In this document: one piece after another, positions 22,825 through 37,171 of the stretch
Numbering within the stretch: the stretch's first letter is position 1
Layout of the letters: each line of letters begins with the position of its first letter
DNA from: Chitinophaga sp. E66
Lineage (GTDB): Bacteria > Bacteroidota > Bacteroidia > Chitinophagales > Chitinophagaceae
Assembly (NCBI GenBank): GCA_019285755.1
Contig: CP079103.1
Location: 310,001 to 374,000 of the forward strand
Direction of reading: 5' to 3'
Length of the DNA stretch: 64,000 nucleotides
Translations under genes and position numbers: made by a program
The notes under the pieces: model-generated
Databases searched by the model: none
What the model was told of the DNA's origin: nothing
What the model saw: only the letters and a program-made list of their open reading frames with translations

Positions 22825-25800
22825 ATGCGTATGTGGAAACTATTCCGAGGGAATGGACTGTTGCTGGTCCTTTTATTGACCGGGATGGCGGCGATGGCCC
22901 AGACCAGCAAGCCCCTCAAAGGTAAAATTACAGACGTGAACGGGGCGGCCATCCCGGGGTAAGCGTTGCCGTAAAGGGTACCTCCAGGGAACGGCCAGCA
23001 ATGCCAACGGAGAATTCACCATTACGGTAGCCCCGATGCCACGCTGGTGATCACCGCCATCGGGTTCGCCACCAGGAAGTACCGGTTGCCGGCAAGAGCT
23101 CCTTATCCATCATCATCCAGGAAAGCTCCAAAGGTCTGGATGAAGTGGTGGTGGTAGGCTACGGCACCCAAAAGAAAGGGGATGTAACCGCCGCTATCTC
23201 TACCGTCAATACCAGGAACTTAGAAAGGCAGCCCGCCGGCAATCTCGGTACCATGCTCCAGGGCCAGGCGGCCGGTGTGATCGTGAGCTCAGGAACGGGT
23301 ACCCCGCCGCCAGTCCCACCGTACTGGTGAGGGGCCTCAATAGCATTAACAACGACAACCCGCTGTACGTGGTAGACGGTATCCCCAGGGTATGCATATG
23401 ACCTCAACCCGAATGACATCGAGTCGGTTTCCATCCTCAAAGACGCTTCCGCCGCTACCATCTACGGTGCCCGGGCAGCGGGAGGGGTGATCATCATCAC
23501 CACCAAGAAAGGAAAAAGCGGGGAGCCGCGGATCAATTTCAACTCCTATGTGTCGCAGCATGAACTGAACAACAACATCCCCTGCTCGGCAAAACCGATA
23601 TGAACAAAGTGGTGAAGCAGGCCTTCGCGAACGACGGCACCACCACCGCCCCGCCCATTTATGTGATGGACGATAACAAATACGCCAATTCCGACTGGGT
23701 GGGGGCGTATATGAAGAAAGGCGTGGAGCAGAAACATGACCTGGACGTGTCCGGCGCATCCGAAAACTATCTTACCGCCTGTCGCTCGGCCATTGGGAGC
23801 ATTCGGGAACATCATCAACTCCGGTTCCAGGCGCGATAACCTCCGCCTGAATACGGAGATCCGCCTGCTGAACGACCGCCTGAAAGTAACCCCGATCCTT
23901 TCCTATACCCGCTTCAATAACAAGAACTTCGGCGACGTAACGGGCGATGGCGACGCCGGATTCTCCGCCATCATGGATCTTTATAAGACGCCCCGCACAA
24001 AAGGATCTATGATCCTTCTTCCGTGAATGGTTTTGCCAAACCGGAACCGGAGCTCGGCTCCGGGAACATGGTAGGGCAGCGCATGCTGACAGACAGCCGC
24101 ACGGCAGACGATCACCTGCAATTCAACATCGCCGCCGATCTGAAACTCTGGAAAGGGTTATCCTATAACTTCAGCGCGGGCCGCAATATCATTAACAGCT
24201 TCAGCTACACGCAGACGCCTGCCTATGATTTCGGGGCGCTGGCGTTGGTGGAAAACCCGAGCCGTTCCGAAAGCCGGGGCCGTACGGAGTACCAGGTGTT
24301 CACGCATTTGCTGAACTATGAAAAGACCTTTGGCCGCCATAACCTGAAAGCCATGTACGGTTTCTCCCGCGAGAAATCCGTGGCACAGGGCACCTCCGCT
24401 TCGGGCAATCACCTTTCCAGCCCGCTGATAGAATCCCTGTCTGGTCTGATTATCGAAGGCAAGAACGACCTGATCCGCGCCAACGGCTGGAATTATTCCA
24501 GCTCGCTGCAGTCTTACTTTGGCCGCGTGTCTTACAACTACGACGACCGTTACTACCTGCAGGGTAGCCTCCGCCGCGATGGTTCCTCCAAGTTCGGGCC
24601 TACGCACCGGTATGGTACTTTCTATTCCGTGTCCGGCGGATGGAACCTGCATAAAGAAAGCTTCTTCAATATCCCATGGATCTCCGAACTGAAGCCGCGC
24701 ATCAGCTACGGCACCGTGGGCAACCAGAATGTGGAAAACTTCCAGTATCTCGCAAAGATCTTCATCGCCGGTTCCAGCGAATGGCTGAACTATCCTTTGG
24801 CGCTGCTCCTTCGCAGCAGGTGTACGTAGGCGCTATCGCGACCGCATTGGCGAACATCAACATCAAATGGGAGCAGACGGCTACCATGAACGCGGGCGTT
24901 AGCTTCAGCTTCCTGAAGGGCGCCATCAGCGGTAATGTCGATTACTTCCGCAGCCGCACGTCAGATATGCTGGCAGAAACACCGATCCCTTCTTCTTCCG
25001 GGATTACCTCCATGCCGCTGACCAATATCGCGGATATGGAAAATAAGGGTTGGGAATTGTCTACTACCTATCGCAACCCTGCTGAGAAAGGTTTCTCCTG
25101 GGATGTGACGCTGAACCTCTCGCATAGCCGTAATAAGATCATTCGTTTGGGATATGATGAAGGCATGATATCCGACGGGTATGTGGATTACTCCAACCGT
25201 GCGAGCACCATTACCCGTAAAGGCGAAGCGCTGGCGTCATTCTACCTCTTTAAATCGAATGGCATTTTCCGTTCGCAGGCGGATGTGGATGCGCATGTGA
25301 ATAAAGAGGGCGACAAGCTGCAACCCAACGCTGCTCCCGGCGACCTGCGCTTTGAGGATACCAACGGCGACGGCCAGCTGAACGATGACGACAAGGTGAT
25401 TATGGGGAATGGCCTGCCGAAGCTGGATTATGGCCTCACCTTCAATGCCCGCTACAAGAACTTCGACCTGATGGTGTTCCTGAACGGTAAGCAAGGTCAG
25501 AAGATGTACAACGGCGCGAAGATGTTCCTCTACCGCTTCTACCGCTCGGCAGACCTGGTGAACGCCTGGACGCCTTCCAATCCAGGATCTGAAGTGTACC
25601 GCCTGTCTGACGAAGACAAGAACGAGAACCTCCGCGTATCCGACTATTTCCTCGAAGACGCTTCGTTCCTTCGCCTGCGGAACCTCCAGCTCGGTTATAC
25701 CCTGCCTTCCGCACTGACGAAAAAGGCATATATCAACCGGCTCCGCATTTATGCCGGCGCTTACAACCTGCTCACGTTCACGAAATACACCGGCTTTGAT

Positions 25801-25899
25801 CCGGATCTGTCTAACACCGGCATCTTCAGCCGCGGGGTAGACCGCGGATATTATCCCATGAGCCGCTCATTTGTGGCAGGCATCAACGTAGGCTTCTAA
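22825..25899 (+). CDS. SusC-like TonB-dependent receptor of the proposed hydroxylysine-glycoside locus
   Basis: An outer-membrane importer without an STN domain, so not of the sigma/FecR-coupled kind. The start at 22825 (MRMWKLFRGNGLLLVLLLTG) follows an A-rich leader and gives a signal peptide. A carboxypeptidase-D-like domain comes first (KGKITDVNGAAIPG, about 22918-23090). The plug follows, with the hallmark LDEVVVVGYGTQKKGDVTAA (about 23140) and LKDASAATIYGARAAGGVI. The barrel then ends in the aromatic SFVAGINVGF. Frame changes are dense between 22960 and 24010 and again near 24800, while the final 1.1 kb is intact. SusD follows 12 bases later. The substrate is inferred from downstream enzymes, not from the receptor itself. 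Confidence 0.9.
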
Positions 25900-35650: not shown

Positions 35651-37171
35651 TGGACTTTTTACAGGATACAGGGATATTGACGCGGCAATCGGGCGTGAGC
35701 ACGGGCGGGCGCTGGCAAACAGGGGAGGGCGGGGAAATCGCTTCTTACTCGCCGGTGGATGGGAAGCTGATCGCCACCGTAGCAGGCGCTTCACGGGCAG
35801 AATACGAAGCCGTTGTGAAAACGGCGCAGGCGGCCTTTAAGAAATGGCGGGAAGTTCCGGCGCCGCTTCGGGGTGAAGTGGTGCGGCAGATCGGCGAGGC
35901 ATTACGCGAAAAGAAAACGTCGCTCGGTAAGCTGGTCAGCTATGAAATGGGCAAGAGCCTGCAGGAGGGGCTCGGTGAAGTGCAGGAGATGATCGATATC
36001 TGTGACTACGCGGTGGGGCTGAGCCGTCAGCTGTATGGTCTTTCCATGCACAGCGAACGCCCGCAGCACCGGATGTATGAGCAGTGGCATCCGCTGGGGA
36101 TCGTAGGAATTATTTCCGCTTTCAACTTCCCGGTGGCGGTATGGAGCTGGAATGCCATGATCGCCTGGGTGTGCGGGGATGTTTGTATCTGGAAGCCCAG
36201 CGAGAAAGCCCCGCTGTCGGCCGTGGCCTGCCAGCACATTGTAGCGGAGGTATTCGCGAAGAACAATGTACCCGAAGGCGTAAGTTGTTTATTGACCGGC
36301 GGTCGCGAAGCAGGGAGCTGGCTGGCGGAAGATCACCGTGTACCGTTGGTATCGGCTACGGGTTCCTCTCGTATGGGGCAGTCGGTAGCGGCAACCGTGG
36401 CTGCCAGGTTCGGCCGTTCGCTGCTGGAGCTGGGTGGGAACAACGCCGTTATTATATCCAAAGACGCCGACCTGGATATGGCGCTCATCGGCACCGTATT
36501 TGGCGCGGCCGGTACAGCGGGACAAAGATGCACCACCACGCGGAGGCTCATCGTTCACAAAGACGTGTACGAGCGCTTCCGGGAGAAACTAATAAAAGCT
36601 TACGGTCAGCTCCGTATCGGCGATCCCCTCAATCAGCAAAACCATGTTGGTCCGCTGATCGATAAGGGGCGGTGGATGCATACCTGCAGGCCATCGCCGC
36701 CTGTAAGGAACAGGGCGGACGGTTTGTGGTAGCGGGCGGTGTGATGGAAGGCCCCGGTTATGAAAGCGGCTGCTACGTGAAGCCCTGCATCGCGGAAGTG
36801 CGCCCGGATTACCCGATCGTACAAACGGAGACGTTCGCCCCTATCTTATACCTCATGGAGTATTCCACGCTGGAAGAGGCGATCGACATGCAGAATAATG
36901 TACCGCAGGGGCTTTCATCCGCCATCATGACCCTGAACCTCCGGGAGGCGGAGCAGTTCCTGTCGTCCGCGGGGAGCGACTGCGGTATTGCCAATGTGAA
37001 CATCGGTACGAGCGGTGCGGAGATCGGCGGCGCTTTTGGTGGAGAGAAGGAAACAGGTGGCGGCCGTGAAAGCGGCAGCGACGCCTGGAAAGCATACATG
37101 CGCCGGCAGACCAATACCATCAATTATGGTAGAAGCTGCCCCTGGCGCAGGGGATTCGATTTGATTTGTAA
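35650..37171 (+). CDS. amaB: 2-aminoadipate semialdehyde dehydrogenase (ALDH7A1/antiquitin type)
   Basis: An NAD(P)-dependent aldehyde dehydrogenase whose sequence is strikingly like antiquitin. It shows GEVVRQIGEALREKKTSLGK, VQEMIDICDYAVGLSRQLYG, EQWHPLGIVGIISAFNFPVA, the general base in FGRSLLELGGNNAVI, the catalytic Cys in GTAGQRCTTTRRL, and NVNIGTSGAEIGGAFGGEKE followed by TGGGRESGSDAWKAYMRRQ. These last blocks are diagnostic of the ALDH7 family and of aminoadipate semialdehyde as substrate. Frame changes lie near 36668 and 37135; the second repair gives the ending PLAQGIRFDL and the stop at 37169-37171. The merged length of about 507 residues is normal. The start shares a base with the HglS stop, so the two are translationally coupled. 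This is the last gene of the cluster, before a terminator. Confidence 0.92.

What the first reader, a model, noticed from the sequence alone, without database searches (positions are those of the whole stretch)
22825..37171. Proposed collagen-type glucosyl-galactosyl-hydroxylysine utilisation locus
SusC, SusD, GH2, YgjK-type GH63, a kinase/phospho-lyase fusion, an ALDH7A1-type dehydrogenase and HglS form one tight + strand cluster, with gaps of 5-18 bases and two ATGA/TAATG-type overlaps. Seen: the gene order and the family motifs. Known: collagen carries Glc-alpha-1,2-Gal-beta-O-hydroxylysine. YgjK-type GH63 can handle Glc-alpha-Gal. LacZ-type GH2 removes beta-galactose. Animal hydroxylysine kinase and PHYKPL convert hydroxylysine to 2-aminoadipate semialdehyde. 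ALDH7A1 oxidises that semialdehyde, and HglS acts on 2-oxoadipate. Inferred: the enzymes line up, in order, as a complete route from the glycosylated amino acid to central metabolism, with its own surface importer. I do not know of a described bacterial locus for this substrate.
Basis: partly seen in the sequence, partly recalled or inferred. Interest (0 to 1): 0.93.

Follow-up and report, generated by a model that had tools for sequence, protein, structure and literature searches.

The report
Collagen sugar-hydroxylysine utilisation gene cluster
A seven-gene cluster in a Chitinophaga-type bacterium, kept together in many related bacteria, is predicted to let the cell take up the sugar-decorated amino acid hydroxylysine that marks animal collagen, likely strip off its glucose and galactose, and likely use the remaining amino acid as food.

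Summary
All but SusD are frame-disrupted in this error-rich assembly, as are neighbouring genes; orthologues in relatives are intact. In 40 same-genus genomes (own included) the fusion and this GH63 occur in exactly the same 19, side by side. In 80 loci from named species genomes, all 48 with a separate GH63 also have GH2 or GH42; GH42 stands in for GH2 mainly in Flavobacterium. Two single proteins tie steps together: GH2-GH63 (L066) and kinase-lyase-HglS (L123). Solved structures of YgjK, the closest match to this GH63, include a complex with Glc-alpha-1,2-Gal. L124 puts the fusion beside galactose-pathway and peptidase genes. Best reading: a glyco-amino-acid utilisation locus for collagen-type Glc-Gal-hydroxylysine. 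The bacterial kinase-lyase fusion and animal pathway were already known (recalled); ten paper searches (capped listings) showed no such locus. Gaps: no biochemistry, no 2-aminoadipate transaminase found, HglS and ALDH7 absent from many related clusters, collagen source inferred.

The parts
21326..22607 (+). TPR protein with C-terminal helix-turn-helix, likely regulator (start lies upstream of 21326; frame-disrupted)
   Evidence: 87-95% identity in three frames to the gene directly upstream of SusC in G025 (L029); a similar gene precedes SusC in L032-L035 (listing). Regulator role and HTH reading are by eye, no family scan.
22825..25899 (+). SusC-type TonB-dependent outer-membrane transporter (frame-disrupted)
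   Evidence: TIGR04056 on 24676-25899, 320 bits, cut-off 368; G025 orthologue 1028 aa, five pieces.
25912..27441 (+). SusD-type surface lipoprotein, intact frame, lipobox-like LFTAC in the stretch at 25963
   Evidence: PF07980 and PF14322; for the motif (lipobox reading by eye).
27446..30566 (+). GH2 LacZ-type beta-galactosidase, predicted periplasmic (frame-disrupted; start approximate, 27446-27515)
   Evidence: motifs SLGNESG at 28877 and CEYAH at 29075 (catalytic roles recalled).
30563..32450 (+). GH63 YgjK-like alpha-glucosidase, predicted periplasmic (frame-disrupted)
   Evidence: WESGMDN at 31779 and ENYHPL at 32359, aligned to YgjK D501 and E727 (D501 as general acid: PMC7263609 passages).
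32456..34748 (+). Fusion: APH-type kinase domain (about 32456-33440) and class III PLP-enzyme domain (about 33440-34748), predicted hydroxylysine kinase/phosphohydroxylysine phospho-lyase (frame-disrupted)
   Evidence: HNDANDYN at 33046 and GKPIGNGHP at 34263 (roles recalled); PLP domain of the orthologue closest to human ethanolamine-phosphate phospho-lyase.
34760..35650 (+). HglS-type 2-oxoadipate dioxygenase/decarboxylase (PF07063)
   Evidence: orthologue closest to 6w1k 'Hydroxyglutarate synthase', which I take to be plant FLO7; motifs with the His, His, Glu and Arg at 34886, 35288, 35501 (residue roles PMC7286885, passages).
35650..37181 (+). ALDH7-type 2-aminoadipate semialdehyde / L-piperidine-6-carboxylate dehydrogenase (frame-disrupted; homology ends 37163)
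   Evidence: G025 orthologue scores 828 bits against the 730-bit cut-off of NF050084.

Best explanation
Window 22825-37181 carries a conserved seven-gene cluster that is predicted to import collagen-type glucosyl-galactosyl-hydroxylysine, likely remove its glucose and then its galactose, and likely break the freed hydroxylysine down towards 2-oxoglutarate. Shown: gene families, order, catalytic motifs, conservation and co-occurrence. Inferred, step by step: SusC/SusD would bind and import free Glc-alpha-1,2-Gal-beta-O-hydroxylysine or short glycopeptides; GH63 would cut the outer alpha-glucose and GH2 (GH42 in Flavobacterium) the beta-galactose, both in the periplasm; hydroxylysine would enter the cytoplasm; the kinase domain would make 5-phosphohydroxylysine; the PLP domain would eliminate phosphate and ammonia to give 2-aminoadipate semialdehyde; ALDH7 would oxidise it to 2-aminoadipate; an unassigned transaminase would give 2-oxoadipate; HglS would turn that into D-2-hydroxyglutarate; and a YdiJ-like oxidase, encoded elsewhere in this genome, would give 2-oxoglutarate.
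Against: No biochemical test. HglS is at 19 and ALDH7 at 11 (12 with a cut copy) of 80 loci. 18 of 80 loci have neither SusD nor GH2, GH63 or GH42 within the stretch held, so the fusion also serves other contexts. GH63 of this type also occurs without the fusion, at the thresholds used, in 2 of 195 family genomes, with no GH2, GH42, SusC or SusD match near it; 15 of the 21 family genomes with the fusion show no GH63 at E <= 1e-60. Curated models are missed: GH63 relative 401 of 625 bits (YgjK), YdiJ-like proteins 573 and 640 of 1350, fusion 957 of 1128 (PRK06148). No transaminase. No M9 collagenase in 40 genomes, but the control also found none, so inconclusive. Distant kinase/lyase pairs on proteobacterial plasmids: the two regions read show ABC-transporter or regulator genes and no annotated glycosidase. 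The nearest solved lyase acts on phosphoethanolamine, not phosphohydroxylysine.
Confidence: 0.7

Rival explanations
1. The fusion is an ethanolamine kinase/phosphoethanolamine lyase and the locus takes a glycosylated ethanolamine or a glycolipid head group; HglS and ALDH7 are neighbours by chance.
For: Best solved match of the lyase is human ethanolamine-phosphate phospho-lyase; hydroxylysine and ethanolamine types cannot be told apart from the sequences I had.
Against: HglS is fused to the kinase-lyase in L123 and directly follows it in 16 of 77 loci with a downstream gene; ALDH7 is of the 2-aminoadipate-semialdehyde type. Neither has an obvious use for acetaldehyde. I did not scan all neighbours for an acetaldehyde dehydrogenase.
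Confidence: 0.1
2. The locus breaks down hydroxylysine-containing material, but the sugar is not collagen's Glc-alpha-1,2-Gal: for example Gal-Hyl alone, or another alpha-glucoside of galactose from plants or microbes.
For: Several loci have GH2 and the fusion but no GH63 (L056, L071, L072); GH63 YgjK-type enzymes have broad alpha-glucosidase activity (recalled).
Against: In the 40 genus genomes GH63 is always present with the fusion (19 of 19) and GH2-GH63 are one protein in L066.
Confidence: 0.13
3. An ordinary alpha-glucosyl-galactoside utilisation locus beside an unrelated amino acid operon.
For: GH63 and GH2 families are found in many sugar loci (recalled); two GH63 relatives stand without the fusion (L146, L147).
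Against: Exact co-occurrence in the genus sample, gaps of a few bases, exchange of GH2 for GH42 with the fusion kept, and the arrangement in Chitinophaga, Flavobacterium, Pedobacter, Niabella and others.
Confidence: 0.05

Closest known systems
Animal hydroxylysine pathway: hydroxylysine kinase (AGPHD1/HYKK) and 5-phosphohydroxylysine phospho-lyase (AGXT2L2/PHYKPL); Veiga-da-Cunha et al. 2012 (not held; seen as a citation in passages of PMC8154272, PMC9283133, PMC12138971)
   Same: Kinase plus PLP lyase domains; bacterial fusions of the two were, as I recall, what led to the human enzymes.
   Different: One polypeptide here, and set behind an outer-membrane importer and two glycosidases.
Bacteroidota polysaccharide utilisation loci (SusC/SusD systems)
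   Same: SusC/SusD pair followed by glycoside hydrolases, with a likely regulator.
   Different: No polymer-cleaving family in the cluster; ends in amino acid catabolism; predicted substrate is a glycosylated amino acid.
E. coli YgjK, GH63
   Same: Fold, catalytic Asp and Glu, 34% identity; YgjK solved with Glc-alpha-1,2-Gal (3w7w).
   Different: Below the curated YgjK cut-off.
Human PGGHG collagen glucosidase, GH65 (PMC8626586, passages)
   Same: Removes glucose from Glc-alpha-1,2-Gal-hydroxylysine.
   Different: Other glycosidase family; a convergent solution if the prediction holds.
Lysine catabolism through HglS/FLO7 (PMC7286885, passages)
   Same: 2-oxoadipate to D-2-hydroxyglutarate, HHE metal site and Arg.
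   Different: Here a further copy placed behind a hydroxylysine kinase/lyase; the other copy, in L128, sits beside a saccharopine-dehydrogenase-like gene.

Membership tests
Polysaccharide utilisation locus | Tandem SusC and SusD | tested here: met
Polysaccharide utilisation locus | Linked glycoside hydrolases | tested here: met
   GH2 and GH63.
Polysaccharide utilisation locus | Polymer-cleaving (endo-acting) enzyme in the cluster | tested here: not met
   The two glycosidases of the cluster are of GH2 LacZ and GH63 YgjK-like type, both exo-acting as recalled; flanking genes were not scanned. So it works like a PUL but is not filed as a polysaccharide locus.
Hydroxylysine kinase / phosphohydroxylysine phospho-lyase | APH kinase domain with catalytic motif | tested here: met
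   PF01636, HNDANDYN at 33046 (motif role recalled).
Hydroxylysine kinase / phosphohydroxylysine phospho-lyase | Class III PLP domain nearest to phospho-lyases rather than transaminases | tested here: met
   sequence: human phospho-lyase 479 bits, Arthrobacter phospho-lyase 314, next 183, structure: human phospho-lyase first.
Hydroxylysine kinase / phosphohydroxylysine phospho-lyase | Specificity for 5-hydroxylysine | not testable with these tools
   Needs enzyme assay; context only.
NCBIfam PRK06148 (kinase/aminotransferase multidomain proteins) | Curated cut-off, 1128 bits | tested here: not met
   957 bits for L048; the model is longer, 1015 positions against 765 residues.
GH63 YgjK-type glucosidase | Catalytic Asp501 and Glu727 equivalents | tested here: met
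   (D413 and E602 invariant in 42 sequences).
GH63 YgjK-type glucosidase | Curated YgjK model PRK10137 cut-off, 625 bits | tested here: not met
   401 bits for the intact relative L048; called YgjK-like only.
LacZ-type GH2 beta-galactosidase | Curated LacZ model cut-off | tested here: inconclusive
   Broken in the window; pieces 725 and 204 bits against 999 for NF052611; the intact relatives were not scanned with it.
L-piperidine-6-carboxylate / 2-aminoadipate semialdehyde dehydrogenase | Curated NF050084 cut-off, 730 bits | tested here: met
   828 bits for the G025 orthologue.
HglS 2-oxoadipate dioxygenase/decarboxylase | PF07063 with HHE metal site and substrate Arg | tested here: met
   18 of 19 HglS in the 80 loci match all three motifs, L116 misses one.
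YdiJ D-2-hydroxyglutarate dehydrogenase (neighbour in relatives) | Curated NF049975 cut-off, 1350 bits | tested here: not met
   573 and 640 bits; called YdiJ-like only.

The most novel reading that the evidence does not exclude
Bacteroidota have a dedicated, self-contained 'glyco-amino-acid utilisation locus' for the collagen signature Glc-alpha-1,2-Gal-beta-O-hydroxylysine: surface import, ordered removal of both sugars, and hydroxylysine catabolism through a kinase-lyase fusion that can even be fused to HglS, with interchangeable galactosidases (GH2, GH42) and glucosidases (GH63, once GH31).
Probability: 0.66. Interest if true: 0.82.

Novelty: new variant of a known kind. Interest (0 to 1): 0.76.

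Why it matters
Collagen is the main animal protein and its hydroxylysine glycans are a marker of it; among the papers listed by my searches of the held library, none describes how microbes recover them. If true, the locus gives a bacterial counterpart of the human collagen-glycan and hydroxylysine pathways, proposes functions for gene clusters in Chitinophaga, Flavobacterium and Pedobacter, extends SusC/SusD loci from polysaccharides to a glycosylated amino acid with use of the amino acid part, and offers enzymes for measuring or trimming collagen glycans.

Tried and rejected
Considered and set aside: decay of the locus (frame breaks are found outside it too); chance adjacency; ethanolamine as the substrate (see rivals); HglS/ALDH7 as mere lysine genes (a further copy exists). 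Led nowhere: M9 collagenase search (0 of 40, control silent); 2-aminoadipate transaminase model (0 of 40 at E <= 1e-100; the control rang in 3 of 14, none over the cut-off); sequence search of the kinase domain alone against solved structures (0 hits); the fold comparison of the fusion was filled by the PLP domain, residues 333-765, so the kinase fold was barely compared; plasmid relatives in the 30 rows shown are about 35-38% identical, and the two regions read have no annotated glycosidase in an incomplete gene table. Trees: HglS cluster copies need 3 label changes, but well-supported branches force only 1, so repeated recruitment is not shown. Selection: the search for related loci kept the best 80 of 512 related stretches, nearly all Bacteroidota by title; some are the same genomes as in the genus sample (for example L095 and L037), so the two sets are not independent; F. 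gillisiae appears twice (L068, L119); some contigs end close to the fusion (for example L050, L092, L093, L112, L120, L124), so neighbour counts are lower bounds; L124 is labelled Limnohabitans MAG but looks misbinned. Gene calls are longest-ORF calls without a gene finder, and labels are best BLAST hits to the window's pieces, so start sites and small gaps are approximate. Peptidases were not counted systematically. Literature: ten searches listed no bacterial locus for this substrate; most listings were capped (for example 25 of 2,200, 30 of 76), and the library holds open-licence papers only.
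Full report
What is there. The window lies in a 6.29-Mb genome of 65% completeness, G000:C1:310001-374000; the closest named relatives of the lyase piece are Chitinophaga. Between 22825 and about 37181 seven genes follow one another on the + strand: SusC, SusD, LacZ-type GH2, YgjK-like GH63, an APH-kinase/class III PLP-enzyme fusion, an HglS-type oxygenase and an ALDH7-type dehydrogenase. 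A TPR/HTH gene, likely the regulator, precedes them (21326-22607, HTH by eye). Mapping with the intact orthologues of the same-genus genome G025 (locus L029) shows 59-96% identity, about 74% or more for all but four pieces of SusC and GH2, with frame breaks in every cluster gene except SusD (HglS by eye); two genes outside the cluster are broken too. Short motifs with the catalytic residues of all enzymes are in place. GH2, GH63 and SusD proteins start with signal-like sequences in the relatives looked at, the fusion, HglS and ALDH7 do not (by eye).

Conservation in the genus. Of 40 genomes searched, 19 (the window's own and 18 others) have the fusion's lyase piece at 72% identity or more; in the other 21 the best hits are other aminotransferases. 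The GH63 is found in the same 19 and in no other at E <= 1e-30. Regions fetched for the 18 relatives show GH63 directly before the fusion and GH2 before that in all 18, one short contig starting inside GH2. SusC/SusD fall in two kinds: the window's SusC piece is 75-89% identical in 6 relatives and 36-40% in 11 (one contig lacks it), so the importer has been exchanged or has diverged while the enzymes stayed. HglS is in 40 of 40 genomes and the ALDH7 type in 39 of 40 (E <= 1e-150); an HglS copy lies in the cluster in 9 of the 19 (window, L029-L035, L043) and ALDH7 in 8 (window, L029-L035, cut in L030). The other copy lies, in L128, beside a saccharopine-dehydrogenase-like gene, which fits lysine catabolism through the same semialdehyde. 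Trees separate the Chitinophaga cluster copies (those with the first kind of SusC/SusD) from the other copies with good support (HglS 100/99, ALDH7 98/98).

Conservation further out. In 195 genomes of the family, 21 have the fusion (E <= 1e-150) and 8 the GH63 (E <= 1e-60); 6 have both, side by side in all 6; 2 GH63 genomes show no fusion and 15 fusion genomes show no GH63 at these limits. The surroundings of those two GH63 genes hold no match to the fusion, GH2, GH42, SusC or SusD. The scan of named species genomes kept the 80 best of 512 related stretches: Chitinophaga, Flavobacterium, Pedobacter, Ferruginibacter, Flavihumibacter, Niabella and others. The gene directly upstream of the fusion on its strand is GH63 in 31, GH42 in 18, GH2 in 7, GH31 in 1 (L125) and SusD in 2 of the 80. 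All 48 loci with a separate GH63 also hold GH2 or GH42; 44 of these also hold SusD; 18 loci have none of GH2, GH42, GH63 and SusD. GH42 (Pfam in L070 and L120; 19 loci by clustering) takes GH2's place, mostly in Flavobacterium: two unrelated beta-galactosidase families in the same place argue that beta-galactose removal is what is kept.

Protein fusions. L066 has GH2 and GH63 in one protein of 1646 aa; L103 has a similar-sized protein (1674 aa) that I did not scan. L123 has kinase, PLP enzyme and HglS in one protein of 1078 aa. The first ties glucose removal to galactose removal, the second ties the kinase-lyase to 2-oxoadipate.

Other neighbours. YdiJ-like FAD/Fe-S proteins (best curated match: D-2-hydroxyglutarate dehydrogenase, below its cut-off) occur in 10 of 80 loci, in L116 together with HglS and ALDH7; all 40 genus genomes have a relative of the L116 protein somewhere. 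L063 adds an amino acid permease. L124 has a DPP-IV-type peptidase, aldose epimerase, galactokinase, galactose-1-phosphate uridylyltransferase and an M24 peptidase before the fusion; L121 has an aminopeptidase-P-type gene and L076 an S9 and an M14 peptidase. Such peptidases and galactose genes beside a hydroxylysine kinase-lyase are what a collagen diet would need, but I did not count peptidases systematically.

How it most likely works. SusC/SusD import the glycosylated amino acid or short glycopeptides; GH63 and GH2 strip glucose and galactose in the periplasm; hydroxylysine is taken up and converted by kinase, phospho-lyase, ALDH7, an unassigned transaminase, HglS and a YdiJ-like oxidase to 2-oxoglutarate. 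Anatomy and association are shown; every catalytic step in this organism is inferred from family and context. The weakest links are the discrimination between phosphohydroxylysine and phosphoethanolamine, the missing transaminase (0 of 40 genomes with the curated model at E <= 1e-100; the control rang in 3 of 14 genomes, none over the cut-off) and the natural source (M9 collagenase search silent also in its control).

What is known. Glucose removal from Glc-Gal-Hyl in animals is by GH65 PGGHG (PMC8626586 and PMC11012932, passages). Human AGXT2L1 and AGXT2L2 are lyases on phosphoethanolamine and phosphohydroxylysine (PMC9283133, passages). From memory, the 2012 paper used bacterial kinase-lyase fusions to reach these functions; it was not held, and PMC12138971 lists it among its references on gene fusions (passages). 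Ten searches of the paper library listed no bacterial locus for this substrate (listings, mostly capped, apart from the passages named).

Verdict. The finding is real and its interpretation is the best available, at about 0.7. It is a new arrangement of known parts: new variant of a known kind.

Noticed in passing
window 38030-38205: Two near-identical A+T-rich inverted repeats built on CTCCTAAT...ATTAGGAG lie close together between genes downstream of the cluster (one search finds CTCCTAAT at 38034, 38044, 38158, 38168).
   Followed up: no
window 21326-39822 and whole genome G000: Frame breaks in most of the genes mapped, inside and outside the cluster; assembly completeness 65%. Looks like an assembly with many indel errors.
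   Followed up: partly
L128 and the further HglS/ALDH7 copies in 39-40 of 40 Chitinophaga genomes: A near-universal HglS/ALDH7 pair, in L128 beside a saccharopine-dehydrogenase-like gene, suggests that Chitinophaga in general break down lysine through 2-aminoadipate.
   Followed up: partly
L029:16126-17932 (G025) and L031 (G036): Two genes, by eye RNA-ligase-like and a partner, lie behind ALDH7 in L029, and two of similar size in L031; one search listed no match to them (above 45% identity) in the window stretch.
   Followed up: no
L146 (G067) and L147 (G174): GH63 relatives of the same type without the kinase-lyase fusion, in other gene surroundings.
   Followed up: partly
L056, L071: Loci with GH2 and the fusion but no SusC/SusD or GH63 match; L056 has an SSF transporter and a Gfo/Idh/MocA oxidoreductase, and L071 has genes of the same sizes. 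Perhaps for Gal-hydroxylysine alone.
   Followed up: partly
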